Virus record (IMG/VR): IMGVR_UViG_3300005095_000025
Coordinates: 1 to 38,243 of that record
Length of the DNA stretch: 38,243 bases
Source of the DNA: a virus
Direction: 5' to 3' (one strand)
Part shown: positions 20,668 to 37,125 of the stretch, one piece after another
How the letters are laid out: the number at the start of each line of letters is the position of its first letter
How positions within the stretch are numbered: position 1 is the first letter of the stretch
Made by a program: the position numbers and the translations under genes
Notes under the pieces: model-generated
The model's database searches: none
What the model was told of the DNA's origin: nothing
The model's input: the letters and a program-made list of their open reading frames with translations, nothing else

Positions 20668-20750
20668 AAAAATTATTAAATGTTTTACTGGATTTTTTAC
20701 TAATCCAAACTATTTTTATTTTAGCTTGGATTTTTCTAATAATTTTCTAA
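20664..20750 (+). CDS. Tiny single-pass membrane peptide, 28 residues
   Basis: 28 residues, almost entirely hydrophobic after MKK: one membrane helix from about residue 8 to 28 containing LLIQTIFILAWIFLIIF. The start overlaps the previous stop (ATGA) and follows GGTGGA. Such peptides in phage early regions can modify the host membrane or other functions, but no role can be assigned. The short length makes it uncertain. Confidence 0.45.
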   Translation: MKKLLNVLLDFLLIQTIFILAWIFLIIF

Positions 20751-20760
20751 ATATGTCAAT

Positions 20761-20791
20761 TTTTCAAACATTCGTTCTGAGTGTTTGAAAA
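20761..20791 (+). repeat. Inverted repeat TTTTCAAACA
   Basis: TTTTCAAACA (20761-20770) is repeated inverted as TGTTTGAAAA (20782-20791) around an 11-base loop. It starts eleven bases after the tiny membrane-peptide gene and could end its transcript. The TTTGAAA core also recurs at 18951 and 19022. Confidence 0.75.
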
Positions 20792-20797
20792 TTAAAC

Positions 20798-20842
20798 AAA
20801 CCGTCAACCTGACAACTTGAAAGTTTGAAAGGTTGACGGTTT
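20798..20842 (+). repeat. 13 bp inverted repeat AAACCGTCAACCT
   Basis: AAACCGTCAACCT (20798-20810) pairs perfectly with AGGTTGACGGTTT (20830-20842). The 19-base interval contains a smaller inverted repeat (AACTT and AAGTT), so a two-tier hairpin is possible. Confidence 0.8.
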
Positions 20843-20872
20843 ACAAAAAGCTTGAAGCTCATATTTGAGTTT

Positions 20873-20990
20873 TAAGCAACTTTTTTATTCTCAGGTATAC
20901 AAAACCATTACTTTTTAAAAAAAGTTGCTTAGAATTGAAATATGGAATTCTCAGAGGGTATTTTATACCTGAGGAGAAACCACATTTCAA
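20873..20990 (+). ncRNA. Candidate structured RNA with two interacting hairpins
   Basis: TAAGCAACTTTTTT (20873-20886) pairs with its inverse at 20918-20931. TTGAAATATGG (20935-20945) pairs with CCACATTTCAA (20980-20990), one G-U allowed. The first loop contains CTCAGGTATA (20890-20899), a perfect complement of TATACCTGAG (20964-20973) inside the second hairpin. This allows a kissing or pseudoknot contact that competes with the local pairing of GGTAT with ATACC. That is seen by base complementarity only; transcription is not shown. Confidence 0.4.
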
Positions 20991-21049
20991 ATTTTTAGTA
21001 GGAAATTCGGTTTTTTGAGGCGAGAGAACTGTGCTTCAAGGCGATTTTT

Positions 21050-21074
21050 TCAGCTCGTAACGGTTACGAGCTGA
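21050..21074. promoter_or_regulatory. TCGTAAC palindrome, copy 2
   Basis: Arms TCAGCTCGTAAC (21050-21061) and GTTACGAGCTGA (21063-21074) are perfectly inverted around one G. The same core occurs at 19552-19576 and 21909-21924. The odd palindrome and repetition suggest a dimeric DNA-binding protein. Confidence 0.65.
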
Positions 21075-21088
21075 CAAACATAAAACTT

Positions 21089-21293
21089 CATATATACCTG
21101 TAAGGTATATATGGCTGGCTCTTTGATAAGTATTTACTCAAATTCGCAAACTTCAAACCCAATAACCTGAAAATTTCTATATATATCCTGTAGGATATAT
21201 ATAGCAGGAAAATTGGCTCTGAGACCACGCATTACTGGAAATGTTTAATTCACGAATAAGGGTTTTAGCATATATATACTTCGTATATATATG
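21089..21293. repeat. Three similar AT-rich hairpins
   Basis: CATATATACCT with AGGTATATATG (21089-21099 and 21103-21113, loop GTA). CTATATATATCCT with AGGATATATATAG (21177-21189 and 21192-21204, loop GT). CATATATATAC with GTATATATATG (21269-21279 and 21283-21293, loop TTC). All three have perfect 11-13 bp stems of similar sequence about 65-80 bases apart. Weaker nested pairings flank the third (AATTCAC with GTGAATT; CACGCATT with AATGCGTG). Confidence 0.8.
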
Positions 21294-21356
21294 GAACTTT
21301 TAAAAAGTGAATTTAGGCGTAAGTGAATGCGTGTTTAAAGAGGGTTTTTGGGAAGA

Positions 21357-21746
21357 GGTAACGAGGGTAAGAGCTTTTGTTTGCGGTATTTAGGCTTGAA
21401 TTTGAGAAGGGAGTTACCGAAAGTTACCTGAGTGTTACCTTTGTATAAATATATATAAAATAAGGACTTATAAATATATTTAATATAAAAGGTAACATAG
21501 TAACAAAAAAAGGTGCGTCAAGTCGTAAAAAATTTTTTCAAAGAAAGGGGGGTGTCTCTGCACAGAATGTTACCTTTTTGTGTGCAAGTCTAAAAGTACC
21601 CTCACCACAGCACCTAAGCACCCTAAAAAAAGGTAACATCTGTATGTTACCCTCTTTGAAATTCGCATATTCGCAAACTACTTTTATTATAAATTATAAG
21701 AATTGCCAAAAAGTCAAAATTTGGAGTAACAATTTTGCCTGTTACC
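21357..21746. repeat. Cluster of nine GGTAAC/GTTACC hexamers (iteron-like)
   Basis: GGTAAC at 21357, 21491 and 21632, and GTTACC at 21413, 21423, 21434, 21569, 21646 and 21741. GTAAC without the leading G is also at 21500 and 21726. Two copies form a hairpin, GGTAACAT with ATGTTACC (21632-21651). The hexamer would be expected well under once in 390 bp of this composition. Spacing is irregular, unlike a strict iteron array. Confidence 0.7.
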
Positions 21747-21837
21747 TATGATAAATTTTATTTGAAAAGTTTTACCACAAATATTTAAATTCCGGTTTTT
21801 GAAATTTAAATTTTGATTTTTGAAAGTCAAAATTAGA

Positions 21838-21874
21838 TTTTATATTTTCAATTTTGAAAATTGAAAATATAAAA
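21838..21874. repeat. 18 bp inverted repeat around one base
   Basis: TTTTATATTTTCAATTTT (21838-21855) and its exact inverse (21857-21874) are separated by a single G. Low-complexity AT sequence partly explains it, but the length is unusual. A smaller pair, AATTTTGA with TCAAAATT, lies just upstream (about 21809-21834). Confidence 0.75.
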
Positions 21875-21908
21875 ATTTAGTTGAGTAGTATAAATCCATT
21901 TTTATTAA

Positions 21909-21938
21909 CTCGTAACGTTACGAGCTGCTATATATAAT
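21909..21938 (+). promoter_or_regulatory. TCGTAAC palindrome, copy 3, with a -10 element
   Basis: CTCGTAACGTTACGAG (21909-21924) is a perfect 16-base palindrome. A TATAAT follows at 21933-21938 and the next gene starts at 21958. The palindrome covers the place where a -35 would lie, and no TTGACA-like sequence is present, so the site looks like an operator or activator site controlling the early operon. Confidence 0.6.
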
Positions 21939-21957
21939 TTAACTAAAGGAGGTCAAA

Positions 21958-22326
21958 GTGAAAATATTTAACTTAAAAGGGGTTTTATTGTTTGAAGATG
22001 CGTCCACAAGCTTGAAAGAAACTGTAGAAAATGCAGTTTCTCAGAGTAATACTTTGCGTAGTGCAGACTTGCGTGGTGCTGATTTGCATAATGCAGATTT
22101 GCATGGTGCTAATCTGTATAATGCAGATTTAGATTACTCTAATTTGCCTTTATGTTGTAGTGGTTTAAACATAAAGATAGATAAAAAATTAGCAATACAG
22201 TTTTTGGTGCACGCATTGCAACAGGATTGTGACAACCCAGAATTTCAGAAAATTAGAGAATTAAAGACTGTGCAAAAATTTTGTTCACAGTTTCATCGAA
22301 AAGATGTGAGTTTATGGTTTAACTAG
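21958..22326 (+). CDS. Pentapeptide-repeat protein
   Basis: 122 residues with a GTG start after an AAAGGAGGT site. Residues 36-65 are six pentapeptide repeats (ADLRG ADLHN ADLHG ANLYN ADLDY SNLPL), which form a right-handed square beta helix. The N-terminal strand MKIFNLKGVLLFE and helix (SLKETVENAV) match the usual capping region of small phage pentapeptide proteins. The C-terminal 50 residues are helical with no known match. Some larger repeat proteins mimic DNA and act on gyrase; this one is too short to assume that. First gene of the early block. Confidence 0.85.
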   Translation: MKIFNLKGVLLFEDASTSLKETVENAVSQSNTLRSADLRGADLHNADLHGANLYNADLDYSNLPLCCSGLNIKIDKKLAIQFLVHALQQDCDNPEFQKIRELKTVQKFCSQFHRKDVSLWFN

Positions 22327-22361: not shown

Positions 22362-22787
22362 ATGAATAAAAAAGATTTGTTTAGAAAAGCTTATTTTGAT
22401 TATAAAATGGGTCAAATGAGCGATATTGAGTATCTGGTTGCCTTTCATAAAGTGATTAGGCAAGGCGATGGATTAACTTGGGAACAAATTGGGAATATAA
22501 TTAAAGAAATTCAATCTCAGGTGGGGAATGTAATTATAGCTAATTTTATGGGGTATGAGTATGTTGGGGATGAGCATTTCCATATACATGAGCATGGCTA
22601 TATGGATTCATATTCAGATTTATTTGTGGATCATTTTCATATAAACGAATTGGAATTTAATACGAATTGGTCTTGGCTCATGCCGGTAGTCGAAAAATTA
22701 TGGCAACAAGGGCGGAGAGTGGAAATCAACCCTAATATTAAAGATGTCTATGAAAAAGTTGTAGAAGAAATTGGGAGGAAAAAATGA
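22362..22787 (+). CDS. Conserved phage protein of unknown function (WLMPVVEK motif)
   Basis: 141 residues. ANFMGYEYVGD (about 60-70) followed by the FNTNWSWLMPVVEKLW motif (about 101-116) is a pattern I know from many unrelated phage and prophage proteins annotated as hypothetical. The middle is His-rich (DEHFHIHEHGY, then DHFHI). No function is established. AGGAGG precedes the ATG, and the stop overlaps the next start (ATGA). Confidence 0.75.
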   Translation: MNKKDLFRKAYFDYKMGQMSDIEYLVAFHKVIRQGDGLTWEQIGNIIKEIQSQVGNVIIANFMGYEYVGDEHFHIHEHGYMDSYSDLFVDHFHINELEFNTNWSWLMPVVEKLWQQGRRVEINPNIKDVYEKVVEEIGRKK

Positions 22788-23197
22788 AAAAAGTATTAGT
22801 CAATATTAGCAATCATACATTAAATGTAAAGCAAATTGCTCCGTTTGATAAAGTGATAGAGATGCCTAAAGCCCTAAAAGACAAATGGGCGAAAATCAAG
22901 CCGGACAATAATGTAAAAATTACAAAGGAAATATTGGATTTCTTACGGCTCATTGTGAATAAAGAGGGTAAGTACAATAAAATATTTGTCCATGTGGCAG
23001 GGTTCACCCCTACTGTCAGATTGGTCGTAAACCAAATGCTATCTAAATTTGACGACCAAGTTTGCACTGCTATTTATTCTTTTAGTGAACGCAATACTGT
23101 TGAGGTTGTAGATGTAAATGGGGAAAATATTAAAAAGTCAGTACATAGGTATGAGAGTTGGAACAAATACAAAGATGACACAGAGGTTGAGTTTTAG
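22784..23197 (+). CDS. Csx20/CARF-like protein, candidate ring nuclease
   Basis: 137 residues. The plan resembles the Csx20 family as I remember it: an N-terminal strand ending in NHTL followed by Q (4-17), a MPKALKDKWAKIKP segment (27-40) like the LP..LQ..W..IPP of Csx20, a strand and loop VHVAGFTPTVRLV (69-81) in the place of a VLIQGDFG-type ligand loop, then IYSFSERNTVE (97-107) and a charged C-terminus. Csx20 is one of the small CRISPR-linked ring nucleases that degrade cyclic oligoadenylate. A phage copy would be expected to blunt type III CRISPR signalling. The similarity is by eye and needs a profile search. Confidence 0.5.
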   Translation: MKKVLVNISNHTLNVKQIAPFDKVIEMPKALKDKWAKIKPDNNVKITKEILDFLRLIVNKEGKYNKIFVHVAGFTPTVRLVVNQMLSKFDDQVCTAIYSFSERNTVEVVDVNGENIKKSVHRYESWNKYKDDTEVEF

Positions 23198-23206
23198 GAG
23201 GTAGGA

Positions 23207-24298
23207 ATGGAATATGATTATTTTACTTTTGATGAGTTACTAGATGCAAATGGCTTTACAAGAAGGGGTTGTTGGATCTATGCCCCAGGTAACAAGGTGG
23301 TCTGCAGAAGCCCCAAAGGCGCAGCAAATTCTGTAGACGATGACGCTTTAGATTTTTTTAAGGCCATTCTAGAGGATGAAATGGGCTGCATAGTTATAGA
23401 CGGAGAGACTACACGATATCTTGATTATATAGATATTATGGACAGAGATAGCCATTGCGTATTGCCAGACGATATGCTGGATATATGCAAAGATTTAAAC
23501 CTCACTGTTGATGGTAGAATGTCCAATTATAGCGATACTGTTTTAGACTATTTTTGGTCTGACGGGGTTGAGAATTTAGCTACATACATTAGAGGGCTAT
23601 TCCCCAACTCTGGCTTAACAGTTGTGTCAAGAAAAGGTAAAGATTGGTATGTAGTACCAAGTGTAGAAACTTTAGATACCTTGGGAATGTATTATTACGA
23701 TTTTTATATTATCACTCCTGAAGCTATAGCAGAAGCAGAGAAAGTGGTAGATATATTAAATGGAACCAAAGAGGATTTGGATATGGAATGTTGGGTGGAC
23801 ACGTTTTGGTATGGGTCTAGTGATTATGTAGCATCTCTCCCAGAACCTTTAAAAAGACGACTGGAAAGCATGAATATGGAATGCTGGGATTTGCTAAACC
23901 TAATGCTAGAGCACAAAGGAGATGACGATAGGGCTATTAACGATTATTCTGATTTAGTCGATACGGCATTAAGTGAAATTGTAGATGTCCCAAAGACAGT
24001 ATGCGGATTCCCATATATTAAAGATGAAAATGGAGAATTTGCTGTAGACTTTGGAGATAAGTATGGATTGTATCATGTAAGACTGTTTGAACTTTACAAG
24101 CCTGGCTCTAAGGATATGATTATGCGTGCTTATGAAAAAAGAAAAAGAGAGCGCATAGAGCAAGCTGCCATATTTGAAAAAGCTGCAAATGTATTTGTAG
24201 GCTTTGAAGACAGTATTGATTCAGGGAATTGTCGTTCTGGAAGTTTGAATTTTTGTAAAAAGCACAACCTTAACCCTGAATATGAATATAGGGGGTGA
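23207..24298 (+). CDS. Hypothetical protein, 363 residues
   Basis: 363 residues, acidic, with no family recognised. The N-terminal part (FTFDELLDANGFTRRGCW) looks like a small domain; the centre has many Asp/Glu and aromatic residues (YDFYIITPEAIAEAEKVVD, about 165-183); the C-terminal 60 residues are a charged helix and a short segment with SGNCRSGSLNFCKKHNL. There are nine or more Cys but no clear zinc pattern. Its third-position base use looks less T-rich than its neighbours. It is the longest gene of the first early block. Confidence 0.75.
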   Translation: MEYDYFTFDELLDANGFTRRGCWIYAPGNKVVCRSPKGAANSVDDDALDFFKAILEDEMGCIVIDGETTRYLDYIDIMDRDSHCVLPDDMLDICKDLNLTVDGRMSNYSDTVLDYFWSDGVENLATYIRGLFPNSGLTVVSRKGKDWYVVPSVETLDTLGMYYYDFYIITPEAIAEAEKVVDILNGTKEDLDMECWVDTFWYGSSDYVASLPEPLKRRLESMNMECWDLLNLMLEHKGDDDRAINDYSDLVDTALSEIVDVPKTVCGFPYIKDENGEFAVDFGDKYGLYHVRLFELYKPGSKDMIMRAYEKRKRERIEQAAIFEKAANVFVGFEDSIDSGNCRSGSLNFCKKHNLNPEYEYRG

Positions 24299-36204: not shown

Positions 36205-36613
36205 AAGTAAATGCAAGGTAATGGAAATTTCAAATGATGGTAAAAATTGGGACAATAAAAGAATTGTAATTGAAATTTTTAAAGACAATAGTTGTTTAGC
36301 TGTTGACGATATCTATTTTAGTGCTGAAGAAATTGAAGAATTTAGACAATGTAATGGTTCTTTTGGCACAACTAAATATCATCACTGTCGTGAAATCAAA
36401 GAACCCGAAAAGCGATTGATGACACAAAAAGAATATATAACTTGGGTGGTAACAACAGGCTATAAAAATTGGGTGCTTAGATATGAGAATTGCACTCACC
36501 TTTTTGCACCTTTACCTTGGTCTCAAATTTCTGACCTAAAATATTTAAGAAAAGCACCTATAGACGAAAAAGGCAATATAGGTGAATGGACTAAATTCGA
36601 GGTGGAAGAATGA
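36194..36613 (+). CDS. Second of the duplicated pair, with a different C-terminus
   Basis: 139 residues. The first 67 residues are homologous to module 1 of the upstream protein, including the CKVM, IEIF and CLAVD blocks and the CRE end. The C-terminal half (YITWVVTTGYKNWVLRYENC, then LPWSQISDLKYLRKAP) is unrelated to the other one. It ends KFEVEE, coded by sequence that includes the next ribosome binding site. It overlaps the upstream gene by 11 bases. Confidence 0.7.
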   Translation: MLDRSKCKVMEISNDGKNWDNKRIVIEIFKDNSCLAVDDIYFSAEEIEEFRQCNGSFGTTKYHHCREIKEPEKRLMTQKEYITWVVTTGYKNWVLRYENCTHLFAPLPWSQISDLKYLRKAPIDEKGNIGEWTKFEVEE

Positions 36614-37125
36614 AAAATTTTATTGAGAAAAAACATATGAAAGGTTTAGATTATATTCAAAAGTTTAGAAAGTATCTTGATTATTTGGAAGAGCATCTTC
36701 TCAATGTAATGAAAGCCTTTAATGAGCTTTCAGAAAAATGTAATAAAATGTGGTGGGTAAAAGATGATGTAGCTTGGCATACACTTAGGCAACAAGTGTG
36801 TTATCACGATATCTCTAAATTTTCTCCAGAAGAGTTTATAGAATACCAAAGAGCATTTTTCCCTGTTGATGAGAAAGAGAATTTAAAAAATGCTTGGGAA
36901 CACCATAAAAATAACAATACTCATCATCACGAAAGCCTTAAAGATGATTTAGATGTTGTCCATATGGTTATTGATTGGATAGCTATGGGTTACAAGTTTG
37001 GGGATACAGCTAAGGAGTATTATGAGAATAATAAAGACAGAATTAAATTAAATGATAGGCAAAAAAAGATAATGTATGAAATATTTAATAATATGTATGT
37101 TAAAAAATTCGAGGTGGAAGAATGA
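36610..37125 (+). CDS. DUF5662-like protein
   Basis: 171 residues. The plan matches DUF5662 as I know it: an N-terminal helix with HL..V, then CYHDISKFSPEEFIEYQ (64-80) with H66 and D67, AWEHHKNNNTHHHE (95-108) and a later DWIAMGYKFGDTAKEYYENN (122-141). H66, D67, H98, H99 and H105-H107 look like metal ligands of an HD-like fold. This is a family of unknown function, common in phages. It overlaps its neighbours by four bases on each side and ends in the same KFEVEE junction as the previous gene. Confidence 0.75.
   Translation: MKNFIEKKHMKGLDYIQKFRKYLDYLEEHLLNVMKAFNELSEKCNKMWWVKDDVAWHTLRQQVCYHDISKFSPEEFIEYQRAFFPVDEKENLKNAWEHHKNNNTHHHESLKDDLDVVHMVIDWIAMGYKFGDTAKEYYENNKDRIKLNDRQKKIMYEIFNNMYVKKFEVEE

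What the first reader, a model, noticed from the sequence alone, without database searches (positions are those of the whole stretch)
22784..23197. Candidate phage ring nuclease of Csx20/CARF type
The 137-residue protein follows the order of motifs I recall from Csx20: N-terminal strand with NHTL and Q, an MP..LK.KW..I.P segment, a glycine loop in VHVAGFTPTVRLV, and IYSFSER..VE. Viral ring nucleases known so far are of other types (Crn2/AcrIII-1). A Csx20-like one in an early operon, with no CRISPR genes nearby, would be a new route to switch off type III CRISPR signalling.
Basis: partly seen in the sequence, partly recalled or inferred. Interest (0 to 1): 0.8.

Follow-up and report, generated by a model that had tools for sequence, protein, structure and literature searches.

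The report
Phage gene resembling CRISPR off-switch enzyme
An uncultured phage carries a distant relative of Csx20, a bacterial enzyme that destroys the alarm molecule of type III CRISPR immunity, so the phage probably uses it to silence that immunity; a few other phages and plasmids carry similar genes, whose presumed binding pocket differs from the bacterial version.

Summary
In detail: a 137-aa ORF (22784-23197, +), with a good ribosome-binding site, overlaps its upstream neighbour by 4 bases in the rightward gene block of a 38-kb tailed-phage contig. It is a remote but real Csx20 homologue: NCBIfam Csx20 E=3.9e-7 over the full length, PADLOC Csx20 E=8.9e-9, 36.5 bits to a profile of 55 cellular Csx20 (best of 4,856 scored shuffles: 12.7), profile-profile probability 99.2%. 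A phage-only profile run over 398 Bacillota genomes hits only Csx20 loci. The AlphaFold2 model (pLDDT 87) has the canonical Csx20 order of elements; fold search ranks CARF proteins first, weakly.

It is not a standard Csx20. It scores below the curated cut-off and lacks the QGDFG loop and the FxH and RxY motifs; it keeps the motif-I histidine (H11), whose Csx15 counterpart is catalytic. It groups with proteins of four Fusobacterium phages; RM378, ctKpZ937, Pm86 and some plasmids have similar ones, outside type III loci where genes are annotated.

The novelty claim is partly outdated: Csx20 is a proven cA4 ring nuclease already reported in four phage genomes. Best reading: a divergent Csx20-type anti-CRISPR that degrades, or at least binds, cyclic oligoadenylate. 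Activity, substrate and host are undetermined.

The parts
22784..23197 (+). csx20-like gene, 137 aa, divergent Csx20/CARF-type protein
22773..22779 (+). GGGAGGA ribosome-binding site of the csx20-like gene
   Evidence: sequence; the same GGAGGAAAAAATG leader precedes several neighbouring genes (families D1 and D3)
22814..22816 (+). codon of His11, motif I, invariant in 55 of 55 cellular Csx20; the corresponding His13 of CliCsx15 is essential for ring-nuclease activity
   Evidence: PMC13148439
22991..23014 (+). codons 70-77 (HVAGFTPT), the loop after the third strand; stands where cellular Csx20 has LIQGDFGA
23090..23092 (+). codon of Arg103, conserved in 96% of cellular Csx20 and in all phage relatives aligned
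22362..22787 (+). upstream ORF, 141 aa, overlapping the csx20-like start by 4 bases; no family match
23207..24298 (+). downstream ORF, 363 aa, starts 9 bases after the csx20-like stop; no family match
21958..22326 (+). 122-aa pentapeptide-repeat protein (GTG start), the first sizeable ORF of the rightward gene block downstream of the noncoding stretch

Best explanation
The gene encodes a divergent, phage-borne member of the Csx20 lineage of CARF-like (Rossmann-type) proteins. Most likely, on entry into a host with type III CRISPR, the phage makes it with its other rightward genes. It would work as a dimer (inferred from Csx20 models), bind the cyclic oligoadenylate made by Cas10, probably cA4, and cut it with help of the motif-I histidine (His11), so that Csx1-type effectors are not activated. 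Shown here: homology to Csx20, the fold prediction, the conserved His11/Gln17/Gly73/Arg103/Glu107 set, and related genes in phages and plasmids. Inferred: dimer, ligand, cleavage, timing and anti-CRISPR role.
For: Full-length Csx20 matches in two independent libraries. Cellular-Csx20 profile 36.5 bits against at most 12.7 for shuffles. hhalign of the phage alignment against cellular Csx20: 99.2%, E 5e-20, against 74% over 51 columns for Csx15. Reciprocal test: a profile of seven phage proteins over 398 Bacillota genomes gives 21 matches, all at loci that the Csx20 family model also finds. AlphaFold2 model pLDDT 87 with the same strand/helix order as canonical Csx20; top PDB match is the CARF nuclease Can2, with Csm6 and SAVED proteins among the next. 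Csx20 is a verified cA4 ring nuclease (PMC12409355). Relatives lie in four Fusobacterium phages, RM378, ctKpZ937 and Pm86. A second, unrelated phage carries a nearly canonical Csx20 close to a Nautiliaceae gene, so phages do acquire this family.
Against: The score is below the NCBIfam cut-off (30.5 of 70 bits). The QGDFG loop, the FxH motif (here HRY, with Tyr123 for His) and the terminal RxY are missing, so catalysis or ligand may differ. Fold-search E-values against solved structures are weak (0.025), although canonical Csx20 gives equally weak ones (0.014). The host is unknown and so is its type III status. No close relative was found to test for selection on the gene.
Confidence: 0.6

Rival explanations
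1. A cyclic-oligoadenylate sponge: the protein keeps the Csx20 fold and binds cA4 or another cyclic nucleotide, but has lost efficient cleavage and works by sequestration, as Csx15 largely does.
For: Residues nearly invariant in cellular Csx20 (QGDFG, FxH, RxY) are replaced in the window protein while the fold core stays. Csx15, with the same N-terminal SH..L..Q motif, is a good cA4 sponge and a very slow nuclease (PMC13148439).
Against: His11, the catalytic position in Csx15, is retained. Most phage and plasmid relatives keep the FxH histidine, so the window protein is unusual in lacking both it and QGDFG. PMC13148439 argues that sponging is inefficient against the large amounts of messenger made by type III systems.
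Confidence: 0.2
2. A nucleotide-binding anti-defence or regulatory protein aimed at another signal, such as cA3 or other CBASS nucleotides, or SAM-AMP, rather than type III cA4.
For: The presumed ligand loop lacks QGDFG in every aligned phage and plasmid relative (mostly AGF or GGA in place of QGD), and the mobile-element copies with annotated surroundings lie outside type III loci. Csx20 itself degrades cA3 at high enzyme concentration (PMC12409355).
Against: No direct evidence for any other ligand. The stand-alone ring nucleases of the CARF/SAVED type characterised so far are specific for cA4 (PMC12830947).
Confidence: 0.12
3. A degenerate or repurposed Csx20 remnant without nucleotide-related function.
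For: Extra losses in the window protein compared with its phage relatives (Tyr123 for His, His121 for Phe).
Against: Intact ORF with a strong ribosome-binding site, tightly packed between neighbours; no stops or frameshift; confident fold.
Confidence: 0.05
4. An unrelated protein whose match to Csx20 is chance.
For: Below the NCBIfam cut-off; no Pfam or PHROG family.
Against: Shuffle control, reciprocal profile search and profile-profile comparison.
Confidence: 0.03

Closest known systems
Csx20 (NF040559), cellular cA4 ring nuclease of type III CRISPR loci (PMC12409355)
   Same: Full-length profile match, same predicted order of strands and helices, shared His11, Gln17, Trp35, Gly73, Tyr98, Arg103, Glu107
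   Different: 19-27% identity to the cellular sequences aligned with it; AGFTP instead of QGDFG; no FxH and no RxY ending; below the family cut-off; not in a type III locus
Csx20-like proteins of Fusobacterium phages JD-Fnp1/4/6/7
   Same: Closest relatives found: 27-36% identity, E to 1e-12, one clade with the window protein (100/92 and 100/95); share SNH, Q, W, HxAGF and R/E
   Different: They keep FKHKGF or FRHKGF at the C terminus where the window has HRYESW; in the annotated JD-Fnp1 and JD-Fnp4 the gene is two genes before the large terminase gene, not in a block diverging from the structural genes
RM378-like group (Rhodothermus phage RM378 gp2, Pasteurella phage Pm86 fragment, plasmids of Azotobacter, Aromatoleum EbN1 and Caminibacter)
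   Same: N, H, Q, G, R, E, DG and K pattern; weak Csx20 profile matches where scored; outside type III loci where annotated
   Different: Longer middle region and MIGGA loop; five of them scored in a tree form a group of their own (95/95) whose union with the window clade is not resolved (56/78)
Csx15 (NF040560), cA4-binding filament-forming protein (PMC13148439)
   Same: Motif-I SH..L..Q; the essential catalytic His13 of CliCsx15 corresponds to His11 here (alignment)
   Different: Scores 0.2 bits to a Csx15 profile against 36.5 to Csx20; profile similarity limited to 51 N-terminal columns
AcrIII-1/Crn2 (DUF1874) and AcrIII-2 (SAVED), viral cA4 ring nucleases
   Same: Proposed role: removal of cA4 during infection
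   Different: Different families: no Pfam match at E up to 5 and no Crn2 match in NCBIfam or PADLOC

Membership tests
Csx20 | Score above the curated NCBIfam cut-off (70 bits) | tested here: not met
   30.5 bits, E 3.9e-7, full length
Csx20 | Statistically significant full-length profile homology, both directions | tested here: met
   reciprocal search hits only Csx20 loci
Csx20 | Invariant motif-I histidine and following glutamine | tested here: met
   His11 (55/55 cellular) and Gln17 (98%) present
Csx20 | QGDFG loop | tested here: not met
   AGFTP in its place; absent in the phage and plasmid relatives aligned too
Csx20 | Y..xR...E strand motif | tested here: met
   Y98, R103, E107
Csx20 | C-terminal FxH and RxY | tested here: not met
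   H121-R-Y123 and N127-K-Y129 instead
Csx20 | CARF-like Rossmann core with long C-terminal beta hairpin | tested here: met
   Model pLDDT 87, same element order as the canonical model at pLDDT 95. The alignment used held nine canonical Csx20 sequences, so this is not fully independent
Csx20 | Encoded in a type III CRISPR locus | tested here: not met
   Phage contig without CRISPR genes found; not required for a viral homologue
Csx20 | Cleavage of cA4 | not testable with these tools
   Needs purified protein
CARF superfamily | Structural match to solved CARF/SAVED domains | tested here: inconclusive
   Top hit Can2 CARF nuclease, probability 0.91 but E 0.025; Csm6 and SAVED among the next. Canonical Csx20 gives Crn1 at E 0.014
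Csx15 | Match to the Csx15 profile | tested here: not met
   NF040560 no hit in the window; 0.2 bits
AcrIII-1/Crn2 (DUF1874) | DUF1874 domain | tested here: not met
   No Pfam hit at E up to 5

The most novel reading that the evidence does not exclude
Phages and plasmids carry their own branch of the Csx20 lineage, with a remodelled ligand loop (AGFxP or GGAP instead of QGDFG) and no link to CRISPR loci, specialised for anti-defence. Its changed pocket could have a different specificity (cA3, cA6 or other cyclic nucleotides) or a sponge mode, which would make it a new class of anti-CRISPR or anti-CBASS protein.
Probability: 0.22. Interest if true: 0.7.

Novelty: new variant of a known kind. 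Interest (0 to 1): 0.45.

Why it matters
Csx20 was the most frequent stand-alone ring nuclease in the type III loci surveyed in PMC12409355 (78 loci), yet only four phage copies were reported. The genes described here, in phages and plasmids and mostly below database cut-offs, suggest that mobile elements use a divergent form that standard annotation misses. If active, they add an anti-CRISPR lineage besides AcrIII-1, AcrIII-2 and Crn4b, and they would show which of the residues conserved in cellular Csx20 are dispensable, which makes its mechanism testable.

Tried and rejected
Natrialba phage PhiCh1 hit: the annotated gene runs on the opposite strand, so the match was discarded as spurious. 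Csx15 assignment: rejected. Scans of IMG/VR with the window protein, two phage alignments and two single relatives found no phage-type relative, and the terminase and capsid proteins found no close phage, so conservation within a phage lineage and dN/dS could not be tested. The genome-contig scan with the phage alignment found nothing. A phage-type copy was not seen in 398 and 378 sampled Bacillota genomes and was seen in 2 of 200 Campylobacterota (both were already in the query alignment). No phmmer match in the PDB at E up to 10. Chance similarity: rejected by shuffles and the reciprocal search. The best BFVD structural match, A0A5Q2WBQ4 (E 7.7e-8), has no name in the tables at hand and could not be placed. 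PMC12409355's supplement, which names its four phages, was not available; JD-Fnp or RM378 may be among them, but this is unverified.

Full report
What is there. The window is a 38,243-base IMG/VR virus record of unknown host. Leftward genes encode terminase, portal, major head and tape-measure proteins; its relatives in phage databases are distant (terminase and capsid at or below about 29% identity). A gene block runs rightward from about 21,958. The reported ORF, 22784-23197, begins with ATG after GGGAGGA, overlaps the preceding ORF by four bases and is followed 9 bases later by the next. GC skew changes sign between the two arms. 'Early' expression is an inference from this layout.

Is it Csx20? 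Direct profile search gives NCBIfam CAS_Csx20 at E 3.9e-7 over positions 3-124 of 124, but 30.5 bits against a cut-off of 70, and PADLOC Csx20 at E 8.9e-9. Pfam and PHROGs give nothing. I collected 55 non-identical cellular Csx20 sequences from genome and plasmid searches and built a profile: the window protein scores 36.5 bits, the best of 4,856 scored shuffles 12.7. In the other direction, a profile made only of seven phage proteins was run over 398 Bacillota genomes: 21 matches, every one at a place that the Csx20 family model also finds. Profile-profile comparison gives 99.2% with Csx20 over 112 columns, but for Csx15 only 74% over 51 N-terminal columns. Homology to Csx20 is therefore well established by sequence.

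Structure. AlphaFold2 with nine canonical Csx20 sequences in the alignment gives pLDDT 87 and the order E-H-E-H-H-E-H-E-E; a canonical Csx20 with the same set gives pLDDT 95 and the same order, apart from the third helix being split in two. In the PDB the first hit is the CARF nuclease Can2 (probability 0.91, E 0.025), with Csm6 and SAVED domains among the next hits, alongside unrelated SurE entries. The canonical model, as yardstick, finds the ring nuclease Crn1/Sso2081 first, at E 0.014, so weak E-values are normal for this small fold.

Residues. In cellular Csx20 the motif-I histidine is invariant and Gln, QGDFG, Y/R/E, FxH and a final RxY are nearly so. The window keeps His11, Gln17, Trp35, Gly73, Tyr98, Arg103 and Glu107, but has AGFTP for QGDFG, His121 and Tyr123 for F and H, and Asn127 for R. 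In the related family Csx15 the histidine at the same motif is essential for cleavage (CliCsx15 H13A inactive; PMC13148439); this equivalence rests on the sequence alignment.

Relatives. tblastn finds homologues in four Fusobacterium nucleatum phages, and weaker ones in Rhodothermus phage RM378, ctKpZ937 and a fragment in Pasteurella phage Pm86. The window and the four Fusobacterium proteins form a clade (100/92, 100/95). RM378, one gene each from two Campylobacterota genomes (G443, G520) and plasmid genes of Azotobacter and Aromatoleum form a second group (95/95); a Caminibacter plasmid gene is the same as G443's in the alignment. Whether the two groups and ctKpZ937 are one branch is unresolved (56/78), and some rows are long branches. 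Annotated neighbours of these genes are plasmid or phage genes, not type III CRISPR genes. Separately, two closely related phage contigs (L027, L028) with terminase and endolysin carry a canonical Csx20, complete in L027 and split by the contig ends in L028's record, next to a Nautiliaceae sequence in the tree (100/99). Canonical capture and a divergent mobile-element form both exist.

Mechanism. Established: Csx20 degrades cA4, and cA3 at high enzyme concentration (PMC12409355). From homology, fold and the retained motif-I histidine I infer binding and probably cleavage of a cyclic oligoadenylate, hence suppression of type III effectors. The missing QGDFG, FxH and RxY leave a real chance of a sponge or of another ligand. 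No computation here can decide that.

Novelty. What appears additional is the shared departure from the cellular loop motif and the occurrence on plasmids outside CRISPR loci; I did not see this described in the papers found, but only eight papers of the open-access library contain the term Csx20, five of them off-topic, so this is a limited check.

Noticed in passing
window 20670-21957: About 1.3 kb with no substantial ORF, between two rightward gene groups, packed with inverted repeats: perfect arms at 21838-21874, 21089-21113, 21177-21204 and 21269-21293, and TCGTAAC/GTTACGA palindromes near 21060 and 21916. Could be an origin or regulatory region.
   Followed up: partly
window 21958-22326: Pentapeptide-repeat protein (PF00805, E 3.2e-9) in the same gene block as the csx20-like gene.
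   Followed up: no
window 36610-37125: DUF5662 protein (Pfam E 2.3e-18) of unknown function.
   Followed up: no
L027 8001-8384; L028 8001-8203: IMG/VR phage contigs with terminase and endolysin carrying a canonical Csx20, sister to a Nautiliaceae gene: an apparently recent capture, separate from the window's lineage.
   Followed up: yes
L113 5048-5518: A divergent Csx20-like protein (34.9 bits) beside RAMP-like genes, apparently in a type III CRISPR locus of a Bacillota genome; it keeps QGEF in place of QGDF.
   Followed up: partly
L117 4998-5393; L118 5001-5393; L119 4986-5465: Csx20-like genes on plasmids of Azotobacter, Aromatoleum and Caminibacter, annotated as hypothetical and outside CRISPR loci.
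   Followed up: yes
L015 309-509: Pasteurella phage Pm86 has an unannotated fragment with the Csx20-like C-terminal half near the end of its record.
   Followed up: partly
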